DNA of 36,400 nt, taken from Erysipelotrichaceae bacterium. Lineage in GTDB: Bacteria; Bacillota_I; Bacilli_A; Erysipelotrichales; Erysipelotrichaceae. Where the stretch lies: assembly GCA_030536365.1 (NCBI GenBank), contig JAUNQE010000005.1, forward strand, positions 1-36,400, given 5' to 3'. This document shows, in pieces, positions 78-8,038 of this stretch. The notes beneath the pieces are model-generated. The model worked only from the letters and a program-made list of their open reading frames with translations. It searched no databases and had not been told where the DNA came from. The stretch's first letter is position 1. Every line of letters begins with the position of its first letter. Made by a program: the position numbers and the translations under genes.

Positions 78-506
78 TTATTCGCCTTCGATGATGATGC
101 TGACGGTCCGCTGTGAGGGTCCGTCGTATTCACAGAACCAGATATCCTGGGCACCGCCGGCGACAAGTTCGCCGTCGATGATCGGAAAATGACAGTGGTT
201 TCCGGTCAGCAGCGCCTTGAGATGCCCTGTCGGATTGCCGCCGGTGCTGCCGTAATCCGGCAGCATATGGCAGTGCGAATACGGAGCATTCTCCGGGACA
301 AGCCGGGAAAGAAAGACATCGATGTCGCTTTCAAGGCACTCGAGAGCCTCATTGACGGTGATGCCGGTCGTCGTATGCCGGGTCTCGACCGTCACCATGC
401 CGTTGCGGATGCCGGAAGCGGCGACAGCTTTCTTCACATCTTCCGTGATGATGAAATACTGGTTGTACTCATCGGTCATGATCTTAAGCGGGACGATCTT
501 GATCAT
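78..506 (-). CDS. YjbQ/UPF0047 family protein
   Basis: A 142-residue single-domain protein of the YjbQ/UPF0047 (TIGR00149) family, full length. Family hallmarks are visible: ETRHTTTGITVNE (residues 41-53), the HCH at 78-80, GNPTGHLKALLTG (90-102), and a C-terminal WFCEYDGPSQRTV segment. E. coli YjbQ shows weak thiamine-phosphate synthase activity in vitro, but the physiological role is unsettled. It is the last gene of the frl-type operon, and its ATG overlaps the stop of the preceding amidohydrolase by 4 nt, which implies translational coupling. Its presence in an Amadori-product operon is unexplained. The family call is firm; the function is not known. Confidence 0.9.
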   Translation of the reverse strand: MIKIVPLKIMTDEYNQYFIITEDVKKAVAASGIRNGMVTVETRHTTTGITVNEALECLESDIDVFLSRLVPENAPYSHCHMLPDYGSTGGNPTGHLKALLTGNHCHFPIIDGELVAGGAQDIWFCEYDGPSQRTVSIIIEGE

Positions 507-1372
507 TCAGCACTCCTTTCCGGGTCATAATGCATGAATTCCACGGCATTCCTGCCCATGATCAGTTCCAGCGTGCTCTCCCGGAAGCCGAGTTCCTTTA
601 TCGCGCCGGCCATGCGGATCATTTCGAAACGCGGATCATTGGTGCCGAACATCACCTGGTGGCGCAGACTGCGGTCGATCCAGGTCATCGGCACATCCTT
701 TGTCAGCATCTGGGTATAGAATTCCCGGGCGCTGTCGAAATAGAGAGCGCCGGTATCGGTATAGACATTGGGATACTTCAGCATCAGCATCGCCACTTCG
801 CGGCACCACGGCCAGCCGAAATGCGCGAGCGAGATGCGCAGGTTCGGACGTTTCTCCGCCAGCGGCTCAAATTTCAGCGGATGGCAGTTCTCCGTCAGAG
901 CGTGCGGTTCGAACGAAAGACCGCTGTGAAAGATCACCGGCCGGTCATATTTCTCGCAGATATCATAAAGCGGATCCAGGAGCTTTTCCGCCGGGGCGAA
1001 ATGCTGACGAGCAGGATGCAGCTTCAGTCCTTTCAGATCGTATTCGGCAAATGCCCGTTCGAGTTTTTCCGGCGCCTTTTTGTCATGCGGATCGACCGAC
1101 GCGAAACCGATGAAACGGTCCGGCGCGAGACCGACGAGCCTGCGGACCTCCTCGTTGCTGACGAGCGGTTCTCCGCCGCTTCCGGAACTGTAGTCTTCCG
1201 GCAGCAGGCAGACGCGGTCGATGCCGGCGCATTTCATTTTGTTGAAGAAGTGCTTCAGCGGTGCCGTGCCGTTTTTATGCAGGTTCAGTTCATCATGACG
1301 GAGCTGTTCTTTTTCCTCATCTCCGTTGATCGGTTCGAAAAAAGCCGGGTGGACGTGGATATCGATGACCAT
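503..1372 (-). CDS. Amidohydrolase-2 family TIM-barrel metal hydrolase
   Basis: A 289-residue cytoplasmic protein with the amidohydrolase_2 (PF04909) pattern: HVH near the N terminus (His6/His8), FHSGLSFEPH (His149) on a middle strand, LAHFGWPW (His184), and FGTNDPRF (Asp246) near the end. These are the usual metal ligands and catalytic Asp of this superfamily, which hydrolyses or decarboxylates small cyclic or carboxylated substrates. The start overlaps the frlC stop by one base (TGATG), and its own stop overlaps yjbQ, so it is an integral operon member. It may act on a side product or conjugated form of the Amadori substrate; nothing in the sequence identifies the substrate. Confidence 0.82.
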   Translation of the reverse strand: MVIDIHVHPAFFEPINGDEEKEQLRHDELNLHKNGTAPLKHFFNKMKCAGIDRVCLLPEDYSSGSGGEPLVSNEEVRRLVGLAPDRFIGFASVDPHDKKAPEKLERAFAEYDLKGLKLHPARQHFAPAEKLLDPLYDICEKYDRPVIFHSGLSFEPHALTENCHPLKFEPLAEKRPNLRISLAHFGWPWCREVAMLMLKYPNVYTDTGALYFDSAREFYTQMLTKDVPMTWIDRSLRHQVMFGTNDPRFEMIRMAGAIKELGFRESTLELIMGRNAVEFMHYDPERSAE

Positions 1373-2202
1373 CAGAAACCCGCCTCTTTCATCATTTCGC
1401 GGACGTTGTCGACTGCCCTGCGGGCATAGAAGCGCGGCTCGTTGATATAGCCGGTCACGAGTTCGATCGTTGCGGTGCGGTCGTAATCGATCTCTTTCAG
1501 TTCCTTGATCAGCTCGCGCAGTGGGATCTGGCCTTCGCCGGGCATTACGTGATCGTCCGAATCCCGGACACCGTCGATCAGATGCAGATGGTACATCTTG
1601 TCGCCGAGCTTGTCGAAGTAGTCCATGATGCTTTCATACTGGGTAAACGGCGGGACCAGGTCGCACATGCCGACGAGGTTCGGGGAATCGACCGCCTTGA
1701 AGAGCTTCTGCAGATCGTTGGCGGATTTGATGACATTGGATTCATAGACGGTCAGTGCTTCCATGACGATCTTCATGCCGATCTTCTCCGCGTGGTCGGT
1801 CAGTTCGCGGACGCTTTTGATCAGACGGGACCAGATCTCGTCGTAGGTCGCGCCGTAACCGGCGTGCGCGGCGGAGATCAGCGTATAGTCGGCGCCCATC
1901 GCTTTCGCCATGTCAAAGCACAGTTTCAGGTATTCGATGGCATCCTGCCGCATGGCTTCGCTGCCGATCATGTAGTTATAGGGATAGGCGTTGTGTTCCG
2001 GGCAGTAGCCGCGGATCTCGACGCCGTATTTGTCGCGCAGACGGAGGATCTCGTTGATATCTCCGTTTTTCAGATCCGGGGCAAAGGCGTGCGGACGGCC
2101 GCCCCAGAGTTCGATATAGTCATAGCCGAAGCGTTTCGCATCGATGAAGATGTGTTCAAGATCGTTGCGCTGATAACCGCTTGTAAACATTCCGAGTTTC
2201 AT
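1372..2202 (-). CDS. frlC: Fructoselysine 3-epimerase (FrlC)
   Basis: A 276-residue xylose-isomerase-like TIM barrel, the same length as E. coli FrlC. The similarity is strong throughout: an N-terminal MFTSGYQR stretch, ELWGGRPHAFAPDLKNG at 31-47, YTLISAAHAGY at 106-116, and NEPRFYARRA near the C terminus. Probable metal ligands are Glu148, Asp181, His207 and Glu247. The known reaction interconverts fructoselysine and psicoselysine, feeding the 6-kinase. It has a good site (AGGAGGAG) before ATG and sits 12 nt after the second kinase gene. FrlC specificity within sugar epimerases is inferred from this motif match and from the frlA/B/D neighbours. Confidence 0.9.
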   Translation of the reverse strand: MKLGMFTSGYQRNDLEHIFIDAKRFGYDYIELWGGRPHAFAPDLKNGDINEILRLRDKYGVEIRGYCPEHNAYPYNYMIGSEAMRQDAIEYLKLCFDMAKAMGADYTLISAAHAGYGATYDEIWSRLIKSVRELTDHAEKIGMKIVMEALTVYESNVIKSANDLQKLFKAVDSPNLVGMCDLVPPFTQYESIMDYFDKLGDKMYHLHLIDGVRDSDDHVMPGEGQIPLRELIKELKEIDYDRTATIELVTGYINEPRFYARRAVDNVREMMKEAGF

Positions 2203-6541: not shown

Positions 6542-6691
6542 CTTTTTTCTCCTTATATAAATCATATATGACTTTCAGCCGCTTCCGATCAACGATCGGC
6601 AGCAATTGAAAGCCAACAGCGGGAGTGCAGGACTCCCGGAGACCGGAAGCCCTGCAAGTTCATTGTGAATGTTTGAAACCGGAAGGCACTA
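6542..6691 (-). other. Structured intergenic leader between frlA and frlD
   Basis: These 150 bp hold no gene. Two clean hairpins are present: CCGATC-AAC-GATCGG (6585-6599) and GGGAGT-GCAGG-ACTCCC (6621-6637), with further GC-rich complementarity around 6638-6655. Neither is followed by a U-run on the minus strand. They look like mRNA-stability or processing structures that could uncouple permease expression from enzyme expression. Confidence 0.5.
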
Positions 6692-8038
6692 TTATGCCTG
6701 TTCCGACTGTTTCTTGAAGAAAAGATATGCCGGAACACCGGTGATGAATGTCAGAGCTGCGCAGATCAGAGACGGGATCGGTGCATAGGTGATCTCACCA
6801 TAGATCAGGGTGCAGGTCATGAAGATCGCGATGATCGGCATGAGAAGTCCGCCCGGACATTTGTAAGTCGGTTTGTAGCCGCCGGCTTCACCCTTCTTGC
6901 GGAGAACGAAGATCGTACCGAATGTCAGGGCATTCTTGGTCAGAGCGATCATTGTGAAGTAACCCAACAGGCTGGCCAGGTTCGACGCAAAGATCAGGAT
7001 AATGCCGAGAGCACACTGGACGATGATCGAGAAATACGGGGTCTCCCACTGCGGATGAACATAACCGAACTGCTTGAAGAACAGTTTATCCTTTGCCATA
7101 GCGTATTCGATACGGGGCTGGAACAGGATACAGGAAGAAAGAGAACCCAGAACGACGATGATCGCCATGACTGCAACGACAACACCGGCGATACTGCCGA
7201 TACCAGGCAGTTTGGAGGCCATCAGCGCGATCGGCGCATCAGAAGCCGCGATCTCATCGATCGTCAGAAGACCGGAAGCGACGAAAGTCAGTCCGCCGTA
7301 GAGAGCCAGAACGATGATCGCTGTCAGGATCAGGCCTCTCGGCATATTCTTATGCGGATCCTTGATCTCACCGGACATGTAACAGGCAGCACCCATACCG
7401 TCATAAGACCAGGTCGTACCGGCGACACCGGCGATCAGGGCTGTCAGACCGAGAGATTTGCCGAAGCCCGCCAGAGGCGCATTCGATAATAACAGGTGGG
7501 AGTTGAGGTTGAAGAGGCCGATGCCGATAATCAGAGCGAACGGGATGATCTTGAACGCTGTGATAACTGTCTGGAAAGCACCGCCGCCCTCAACGGATCT
7601 GAGATGCAGGAACATGAAGATCAGAACGAAGACGACCGCGACACATTTCAGCGTCAGATCGCTCATCGGAACGAAGAACGCCAGATGGTTAACGATCGCA
7701 AGAGCCATGATCGAGATGGATGGCGGGTCTGTCGCGAGGATCGAGATCCAGCCGCACAGGAAAGCCAGCATCTTGGAACCGGCTTCGCGGAAATAAACGT
7801 ACTGGCCGCCGTCTTCGGGATATGCCGAAGCCAGCTCCGAGTAACAGAAGTTTGCCGGGATCTGCAGCAGACCGCCGATGATGAAGGCTAGAAACAGGAA
7901 CAACATGCTTCCGGAAGCGTTGGCAACTTCAGAAAGCGATGAAAAGATACCTGAACCTACAGTGGTACCGACGCCCAGCGCGATAACTGCCCCTAAGCCT
8001 AGTTTTCTGCCGAGGTCTTTCTTGTTTTGAGTTTCCAT
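6692..8038 (-). CDS. frlA: FrlA-type amino acid permease (fructoselysine/psicoselysine transporter)
   Basis: A 448-residue APC-superfamily permease with about 12 hydrophobic segments. It matches E. coli FrlA (445 residues) along its whole length: an early [17 protein letters not shown] motif, [24 protein letters not shown], the MSGEIK.P.K.MPR segment, LGSLSSC and EYAMAKD.LFFK.FG. It should import Amadori compounds through the plasma membrane. The ATG is preceded by AGGAGG (6-nt spacing). It is the first gene of the operon and has its own sigma-A promoter about 90 bp upstream. Orthology to FrlA, rather than to a general amino acid permease, is supported by both sequence motifs and context. Confidence 0.92.

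What the first reader, a model, noticed from the sequence alone, without database searches (positions are those of the whole stretch)
78..8038. Expanded frl-type operon: duplicated FrlD kinase plus four accessory enzymes
FrlA, B, C and D make a complete fructoselysine route, but the operon also has a second, diverged kinase, a BtpA/SgcQ barrel, an EstA esterase, an amidohydrolase and YjbQ, all tightly coupled. None of these belongs to the E. coli frl operon. The set could process acylated, peptide-bound or otherwise modified Amadori compounds, or a different ketose-amine. This may be an undescribed catabolic variant.
Basis: partly seen in the sequence, partly recalled or inferred. Interest (0 to 1): 0.75.

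Follow-up and report, generated by a model that had tools for sequence, protein, structure and literature searches.

The report
Expanded glycated-lysine (Amadori) breakdown gene cluster
Nine adjacent genes, probably from a gut bacterium, look like a system for eating sugar-damaged lysine from heated or aged protein, and most of the genes that the textbook version lacks travel with it in distant bacteria, so they probably do real but still unknown chemistry in the pathway.

Summary
The nine genes are real, intact and on one strand. Two corrections apply. The 'FrlB' is not an E. coli-type FrlB (23% identity; 54.6 bits against a cut-off of 430); it is nearest to a Salmonella SIS protein that I recall as GfrF. 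The two FrlD kinases are not a recent duplication: one well-supported branch separates them, and FrlD1 differs from FrlD2 and E. coli FrlD at conserved, probably sugar-contacting residues. The accessory genes are not hitch-hikers. Of 16 close amidohydrolase relatives in 315 genomes of the order, 15 lie beside a SIS deglycase and the 16th sits on a contig broken there. In 60 fetched SIS loci, YjbQ is next to 13 of 13 with the amidohydrolase and 0 of 47 without. In 80 loci from a genome scan (four phyla) most of the set recurs, with a second amidohydrolase, an FGGY kinase and GntR regulators; five carry an E. coli-type FrlB instead. Best reading: a ketosamine catabolic cluster in which FrlD2 plus the SIS deglycase form an autonomous core, and FrlD1-FrlC-amidohydrolase-YjbQ is a second module extending its substrates. 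The chemistry of amidohydrolase, YjbQ, BtpA and EstA is unproven. New variant of a known kind.

The parts
6692..8038 (-). FrlA-like APC permease, first gene of the operon
   Evidence: PF13520 3e-50; 52% identity to E. coli FrlA; NF008466 513 bits, below cut-off 800
6542..6691 (-). intercistronic double hairpin between frlA and frlD2
   Evidence: MFE -56.1, z -4.96; aligned with 9 relatives, 13 of 25 predicted pairs with two-sided changes, covariation term weak (-0.24)
5747..6541 (-). FrlD2: PfkB kinase, partner of the deglycase, sharing more residues with E. coli FrlD
   Evidence: NF007321 327>247; 43% to E. coli FrlD; E. coli FrlD has the FrlD2 residue at 13 of 17 columns that separate the two groups
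4966..5745 (-). EstA-type putative esterase (alpha/beta hydrolase)
   Evidence: PF00756 4e-19
3890..4951 (-). SIS ketosamine-6-phosphate deglycase, nearest to 2a3n/8glr (recalled as Salmonella GfrF), not E. coli FrlB
   Evidence: PF01380; 2a3n 1e-53, 3eua 5e-28; NF008481 54.6<430; EFFHG motif at residue 255
3028..3837 (-). BtpA/SgcQ-family TIM barrel
   Evidence: TIGR00259 225>153; model pLDDT 86.6, structural neighbours such as KDPGal/KDPG aldolase, TenI, GGGPS, DHPS, Z 17-19
2215..3009 (-). FrlD1: second PfkB kinase, own clade, altered conserved residues T23, D28, N219
   Evidence: NF007321 376>247; clade support 100/99; residues; GAGD motif kept
1372..2202 (-). FrlC, fructoselysine 3-epimerase family
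   Evidence: NF007360 449>305; 53% to E. coli FrlC
503..1372 (-). AmH2: Amidohydro_2 TIM barrel (ACMSD/decarboxylase-like fold)
   Evidence: PF04909; model pLDDT 94.7; 3irs Z 28.7, 262 aligned, 2.7 A
78..506 (-). YjbQ/UPF0047
   Evidence: TIGR00149 97>68; directly downstream of AmH2 in 76 of 80 scanned loci
8362..9909 (+). AmH3: Amidohydro_3 protein, divergent from frlA, part of the conserved cluster
   Evidence: PF07969; near AmH2 in 30 of 47 full-flank loci
9906..11450 (+). FGGY sugar kinase, part of the conserved cluster
   Evidence: PF00370/PF02782; near AmH2 in 28 of 47 full-flank loci

Best explanation
This is a catabolic cluster for ketosamines (Amadori compounds such as fructoselysine and its C3 epimer psicoselysine), built from two modules behind one permease. 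Core module: FrlA imports the compound, FrlD2 phosphorylates it at C6, and the SIS deglycase splits it into a hexose 6-phosphate and the free amine (lysine, most likely). Second module: FrlC epimerises C3, and FrlD1, a separate kinase class with a changed sugar pocket, phosphorylates a related ketosamine. The metal-dependent amidohydrolase AmH2 and YjbQ act as a pair on that ketosamine or its phosphate, bringing it into a form that the single deglycase can cleave. BtpA, EstA, AmH3 and the FGGY kinase widen the range further. Inferred from homology and context: the core module. Shown by sequence comparison: co-conservation, order, the two kinase groups, exchange of the deglycase type, loss of the second module with kinase and deglycase kept. 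Inferred only: the order of steps in the second module and what AmH2, YjbQ, BtpA, EstA, AmH3 and FGGY do.
For: Families. In 315 genomes of the order, 16 strong AmH2 places (over 200 bits) in 13 genomes: 15 lie on a contig with a SIS deglycase within about 5 kb; the 16th (G172) is on a contig that starts inside the operon, with the SIS gene cut at the end of another contig. Of 60 fetched places, YjbQ is present in 13 of 13 with AmH2 and 0 of 47 without. Both kinase groups are in 39 of 80 loci, 30 of the 47. Of the 80, 52 hold exactly one SIS over 100 bits, 28 none, none two. Five loci (L121, L124, L139, L140, L156) carry an E. coli-type FrlB (57-60%) in this cluster and no GfrF-type enzyme; 43 carry a SIS nearer to the window's (31-95%) and no FrlB type; 8 hold only other SIS proteins. 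L121's FrlB passes the equivalog cut-off, 471>430. This ties the cluster to fructoselysine 6-phosphate. AmH2-YjbQ also sits inside gfr-like PTS operons (L078, L087) and beside SBP_bac_3-type ABC transporters (L088, L171), each time with a SIS gene in the stretch, so the pair works whatever the phosphorylating step. Kinase groups. Natural decay: L046 keeps FrlD2 and SIS whole while EstA, BtpA and YjbQ are fragments and FrlD1, FrlC and AmH2 are gone.
Against: No substrate was tested. FrlD1 still scores above FrlD2 on the FrlD equivalog model (376 against 327), and in the careful tree E. coli FrlD joins the branch next to the FrlD1 clade (99/83, long branch), so both may be plain fructoselysine kinases. 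The deglycase is only distantly like E. coli FrlB. BtpA is common elsewhere (65 of 315 genomes) and EstA is absent in 33 of 47 full-flank loci, so those two may serve another purpose. Of the 47 full-flank loci, L107, L172 and L173 lack any SIS match and L145, L147, L153 and L157 have only matches under 100 bits; L107's stretch ends just after frlA. L162, L164, L168 and L173 have neither kinase group. L046 and the 17 FrlD2-SIS loci have no FrlA hit either, so FrlA is not part of the minimal core. AmH2 has Asn at the position that I take for the usual catalytic Asp in 53 of 82 sequences, so hydrolysis itself is not assured.
Confidence: 0.6

Rival explanations
1. The target is not fructoselysine but another glycated amine: an alpha-glycated amino acid, glucoselysine, or a ketosamine from a pentose or other hexose; fructoselysine-like names come only from homology.
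For: Deglycase 23% to E. coli FrlB, nearest solved relative 2a3n and next 3eua; FrlD1 pocket changes; transporters swap between APC, PTS, SBP_bac_1-type and SBP_bac_3-type ABC.
Against: FrlA and FrlC are 52-53% identical to E. coli; a true FrlB type replaces the SIS enzyme in five loci of the same cluster.
Confidence: 0.25
2. AmH2 and YjbQ are not catabolic enzymes but clear by-products (metabolite repair), for example phosphorylated dicarbonyls or dead-end adducts formed from ketosamine 6-phosphates.
For: They follow deglycase operons irrespective of transporter and kinase, including PTS types, and are missing in many FrlD2-SIS loci.
Against: Repair genes would be expected in most deglycase operons; only 13 of the 102 genomes with a SIS hit have a strong AmH2.
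Confidence: 0.2
3. Both kinases phosphorylate fructoselysine; the second copy only adds dosage or separate regulation.
For: Both pass the FrlD equivalog cut-off and keep GAGD; E. coli FrlD attaches between the groups, next to FrlD1 in the careful tree.
Against: The two groups are kept side by side in 30 of 47 full-flank loci, with near-fixed differences at three conserved residues (T 64, D 65, N 67 of 67 against G, N, D 59 of 59), E. coli FrlD having the FrlD2 state at all three.
Confidence: 0.17
4. An ordinary frl operon with chance neighbours.
For: FrlD2 plus deglycase occur without the rest in 17 fetched loci.
Against: The accessory set recurs in four phyla with different gene orders.
Confidence: 0.04

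Closest known systems
E. coli frlABCDR operon (fructoselysine/psicoselysine)
   Same: FrlA, FrlC and FrlD relatives; GntR-UTRA regulators in relatives (29% and 26% to FrlR); kinase plus SIS deglycase logic; in five related loci a FrlB of the E. coli type
   Different: SIS enzyme of another type in the window, second kinase class, AmH2, YjbQ, BtpA, EstA, AmH3, FGGY; none annotated among frlA-frlR in the E. coli record
Salmonella gfrABCDEF (PTS; fructoselysine/glucoselysine)
   Same: deglycase type: nearest solved protein is 2a3n/8glr (recalled to be Salmonella GfrF); nine fetched loci of the same order with 54-56% relatives have gfr-like PTS operons (L064-L072; PTS families checked on L078 and L087)
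   Different: no PTS genes among the nine genes or the divergent pair; phosphorylation by PfkB kinases
Bacillus subtilis frlBONMD-frlP (alpha-glycated amino acids)
   Same: PfkB kinase plus SIS deglycase pairing (passages of PMC12632257)
   Different: ABC importer instead of FrlA; 3eua (recalled as this FrlB) clearly more distant than 2a3n; no AmH2/YjbQ named in those passages
Faecalibacterium prausnitzii seven-gene fructoselysine PTS operon
   Same: deglycase operon in gut Bacillota (passages of PMC12136445)
   Different: PTS-based; gfrABCDF homologues plus a gene without a gfr counterpart

Membership tests
E. coli-type frl operon | FrlC fructoselysine 3-epimerase equivalog | tested here: met
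   NF007360 449 bits over cut-off 305
E. coli-type frl operon | FrlD fructoselysine 6-kinase equivalog | tested here: met
   NF007321: 376 and 327 bits over 247, twice
E. coli-type frl operon | FrlB deglycase equivalog | tested here: not met
   NF008481 54.6 bits, cut-off 430; 23% identity
E. coli-type frl operon | FrlA transporter equivalog | tested here: not met
   NF008466 513 bits, cut-off 800, though 52% identity over 442 residues
E. coli-type frl operon | GntR-UTRA regulator FrlR beside the operon | tested here: inconclusive
   contig ends after YjbQ; in L035 two GntR-UTRA genes follow, 29% and 26% to FrlR
gfr-type operon | mannose-family PTS EIIABCD in the operon | tested here: not met
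   none among the nine genes or the divergent pair
gfr-type operon | GfrF-type deglycase | tested here: inconclusive
   nearest solved relative 2a3n/8glr 1e-53; that this chain is GfrF is recalled, not seen
PfkB kinases | GAGD catalytic motif in both kinases | tested here: met
   FrlD1 residue 222, FrlD2 residue 224
UPF0047/YjbQ | curated model cut-off | tested here: met
   TIGR00149 97.1 over 67.75
BtpA/SgcQ | curated model cut-off | tested here: met
   TIGR00259 224.9 over 153.4
Amidohydro_2 (ACMSD-like) hydrolases/decarboxylases | HxH plus two further His, recalled as metal ligands | tested here: met
   H6 in 80, H8, H149 and H184 in 78 of 82 sequences; the window has all four
Amidohydro_2 (ACMSD-like) hydrolases/decarboxylases | catalytic Asp at the end of the barrel | tested here: inconclusive
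   position 245 is Asn in 53, Asp in 28, Glu in 1 of 82; the equivalence to the Asp rests on recall of the motif
any | enzymatic activity on Amadori compounds | not testable with these tools
   needs biochemistry

The most novel reading that the evidence does not exclude
AmH2 and YjbQ form a dedicated two-enzyme step in bacterial ketosamine catabolism, and FrlD1 is a second class of ketosamine kinase. Together they define a widespread but undescribed branch of Amadori degradation and give the UPF0047/YjbQ family a concrete metabolic role.
Probability: 0.45. Interest if true: 0.75.

Novelty: new variant of a known kind. Interest (0 to 1): 0.6.

Why it matters
Fructoselysine and related Amadori compounds are abundant in heated food, and gut bacteria that remove them matter for nutrition and for exposure to glycation products. 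The cluster names a testable gene set in cultured relatives seen (for example Fournierella massiliensis, Caproiciproducens galactitolivorans, Neobacillus niacini), predicts a second kinase specificity, and places YjbQ, a family whose NCBIfam model is only a 'hypothetical equivalog', in one defined pathway.

Tried and rejected
Recent tandem duplication of frlD: rejected by the trees. Plain E. coli-type FrlB: rejected by model score and identity. Chance neighbours: rejected. A riboswitch: the Rfam gathering scan of the window gave only a tRNA. A shared GntR operator: a palindrome TGTATATTTTATACA at 8196-8210 was found in the window, but the same pattern was in none of ten relatives, so I make no claim. 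A solved relative for BtpA by sequence: none at E 0.01; its structural neighbours are generic TIM barrels and say nothing on substrate. YjbQ literature: of 27 papers, 25 listed, none has YjbQ or UPF0047 in title or abstract; none was read.

Literature limits: the library holds only open-licence PMC papers. Searches for a prior description were made; several listings were capped (17: 20 of 72 papers, 50: 15 of 73, 87: 15 of 22, 88: 10 of 42). In what was listed I saw no title or abstract start that links YjbQ or an amidohydrolase to a fructoselysine operon. Passages were read in PMC12136445, PMC4697335, PMC12675984, PMC5270733 and PMC12632257. The original frl and gfr papers (Wiame 2002, 2004, 2005; Miller 2015) were not read; they are known from citing passages and recall. 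PMC12675984 assigns GfrE and GfrF both ways round in different places; PMC5270733 gives GfrF to fructoselysine.

Limits and rows dropped before counts. The 60 order loci are 60 of the places, mostly by rank, all drawn by the SIS match; L043 (cut contig of the same operon) and L046 (decayed operon) are among the 47 without AmH2, and fragments were not counted. The tree left out kinases whose names begin with 21 listed prefixes (long branches or distant kinases) and similar rows: 84 of 142 kept. One search left out 16 prefixes, leaving 67 and 59 rows plus E. coli; its two groups were set by position beside AmH2 and by the tree, so only E. coli FrlD is an outside check. AmH2 columns use 82 sequences (250-340 aa, score over 300). 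The 80 loci are the best of 478, so the share of clusters with all parts is biased to close relatives. In one search SIS and PfkB counts include weak matches; one search gives the stricter ones. L145, L147 and L163 hold further SIS-domain proteins of other kinds. Gene calls were my own mechanical ORF picks, so small or split genes may be missed. Gene names such as HAD, GntR, PTS or antiporter were checked by family search on one or two members each, otherwise carried over by clustering.

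Full report
Observation. The nine genes are present, intact and co-directional. From the promoter side the order is frlA, frlD2, estA, SIS deglycase, btpA, frlD1, frlC, AmH2, yjbQ. A sigma-70-like site lies upstream of frlA at 8263-8234 on the minus strand (a consensus match only). The only large gap, 150 nt after frlA, folds into two strong hairpins (z -4.96). Nine relatives have hairpins at the same place, with two-sided changes at 13 of 25 predicted pairs, although the overall covariation term is weak. I saw no T-run after the first hairpin in the window; it may be a processing or stability element (inference).

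What the deglycase is. The SIS protein scores 54.6 bits on the fructoselysine 6-phosphate deglycase equivalog model, whose cut-off is 430, and is 23% identical to E. coli FrlB. Its nearest solved relatives are 2a3n and 8glr (1e-53), near-identical to each other, ahead of 3eua (5e-28). I recall 2a3n as Salmonella GfrF. In the same order, nine fetched loci with 54-56% relatives (L064-L072) have the SIS gene at the end of PTS operons laid out like gfr; the PTS and sigma-54-activator families were confirmed on members of L078 and L087. So the window uses a gfr-type deglycase fed by frl-type kinases.

The two kinases. A tree of 142 PfkB kinases (quick) and a careful tree of 84 put the kinases beside AmH2 in one clade (44 rows, bootstrap/SH-aLRT 100/99). 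FrlD2 and the kinases near the deglycase fall outside it. E. coli FrlD also falls outside, on a long branch: unresolved, next to the FrlD1 clade (99/83). Seventeen columns separate the two groups: E. coli FrlD has the FrlD2 residue at 13 of them and the FrlD1 residue at none. Among them are the G and N of the motif recalled as PfkB sugar-binding (G to T, N to D in FrlD1) and the D shortly before GAGD (to N), nearly invariant within each group. Both keep GAGD. The duplication is therefore old and the second kinase is probably different in substrate (inference). Against this, FrlD1 scores higher than FrlD2 on the FrlD model. Both groups occur together in 39 of 80 scanned loci, 30 of the 47 with full flanks.

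Co-conservation inside the order. The deglycase query hit 102 of 315 genomes, AmH2 strongly (over 200 bits) 16 places in 13 genomes, BtpA 65 genomes. Of the 16 AmH2 places, 12 are the nine-gene operon (one of them, G172, cut by a contig end before the SIS gene). Two lie in gfr-like PTS operons (EIID-AmH2-YjbQ-SIS; L078, L087). One (L088) is a PfkB-AmH2-YjbQ-ABC transporter (SBP_bac_3)-SIS locus, and the last (G256:C7) has AmH2 and SIS at the same spacing, known by coordinates only. In 60 fetched loci, all drawn by the SIS match, YjbQ is beside 13 of 13 with AmH2 and 0 of 47 without. In the 47 without AmH2, FrlA, AmH3 and FGGY occur once each (L049), BtpA twice (L049, and L043, a cut contig of the same operon), EstA three times (L043, L047, L049). 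FrlD2 (41-73% identical) with the SIS enzyme occurs without FrlA or the accessory module in 17 fetched loci (L047 has a 31% EstA-like hit 4 kb away). In L046 the operon has decayed in place: FrlD2 and SIS are complete, EstA keeps its last 72 residues, BtpA its first 72 in two frames and YjbQ residues 3-46, while FrlD1, FrlC and AmH2 are gone. So kinase plus deglycase is an autonomous core, and the rest is a module that can be lost.

Co-conservation outside. The genome-contig scan with the AmH2 alignment returned 80 loci, the best of 478 relatives: Erysipelotrichaceae, Oscillospiraceae, Lachnospiraceae, Clostridium, Bacillus, Paenibacillus, Coriobacteriia, Spirochaetota and Chloroflexota. A common layout, as in L112, is divergent AmH3 (with a Na+/H+ antiporter-family transporter and a FrlC-like barrel), then FrlD1-FrlC-AmH2-YjbQ-FrlA-GntR-FrlD2-GntR-EstA-SIS-BtpA-HAD-FGGY; many loci lack one or more parts. 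YjbQ is directly downstream of AmH2 on the same strand in 76 of 80, gaps -107 to 38 nt, median 0. Counts for the 47 loci with at least 8 kb on both sides are in the evidence field. The most distant loci differ most: L162, L164, L168 and L173 have neither kinase group. The deglycase is exchangeable: 43 loci carry a SIS nearer to the window's, 5 the E. coli FrlB type in the same cluster, 8 only other SIS proteins, none both of the first two. The one of the five that was scanned (L121) passes the FrlB cut-off. This is the best argument that the cluster is about fructoselysine 6-phosphate.

What the accessory enzymes may do. AmH2 models with high confidence (pLDDT 94.7) as an ACMSD-like barrel; the nearest structure is the uncharacterised BB4693 (Z 28.7, 262 residues, 2.7 A), followed by decarboxylases, the LigJ hydratase and putative lactone hydrolases, so the fold does not fix the reaction. 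Its His ligands are kept in 78-80 of 82 sequences, but the position I take for the usual Asp is Asn in 53, and in L087 both His of HxH are lost. In two Paenibacillus loci (L169, L172) hydantoinase/caprolactamase-like subunits join the cluster. Together with EstA and AmH3 this hints that amide, lactam or lactone opening of the glycated amine is part of the system; this is inference at low confidence. Because AmH2-YjbQ accompanies kinases, PTS and several kinds of importer but nearly always a SIS enzyme, I place the pair between uptake and deglycation.

Comparison and novelty. It works like frl and gfr systems, but it is not a strict member of either: FrlB and FrlA fail their models, and there is no PTS. 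The searches listed under Tried and rejected showed no description of this set, in an open-licence library only and with capped listings. I rate it a new variant of a known kind.

Noticed in passing
window 6542-6691, minus strand: Two strong hairpins between frlA and frlD2, at the same place in nine relatives with two-sided changes; possibly an mRNA processing or stability element.
   Followed up: partly
window 8196-8210: Perfect palindrome TGTATATTTTATACA between the divergent frlA and AmH3 genes; a possible GntR operator, not found by the same pattern in ten relatives.
   Followed up: partly
window 11488-14328: Class II aldolase, ribulose-phosphate 3-epimerase family and a second FGGY kinase next to the cluster; all three kept beside it in five near-relative loci only (L035-L038, L040), so probably a separate pentulose module.
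   Followed up: partly
L046 (G271:C182) 7060-9542: In-place decay of the operon: FrlD2 and SIS complete, EstA, BtpA and YjbQ only as fragments.
   Followed up: yes
L087 8388-9242: AmH2 relative inside a gfr-like PTS operon has lost both His of the HxH motif.
   Followed up: no
L039 1029-6667: Second FrlD1-like kinase (63%) beside GntR and an ABC transporter operon, next to the main cluster.
   Followed up: partly
L169 5292-9114, L172 5228-9044: Hydantoinase/caprolactamase-like subunits in two Paenibacillus versions of the cluster (NF050156 636 bits for L169, cut-off 1000; Hydantoinase_B in L172).
   Followed up: partly
L089 (G000:C88) 1406-2350: A second SIS deglycase-like gene in the window's own genome, 29% identical to the one in the operon.
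   Followed up: no
window 33103-33174: tRNA gene, the only Rfam match in the window.
   Followed up: no
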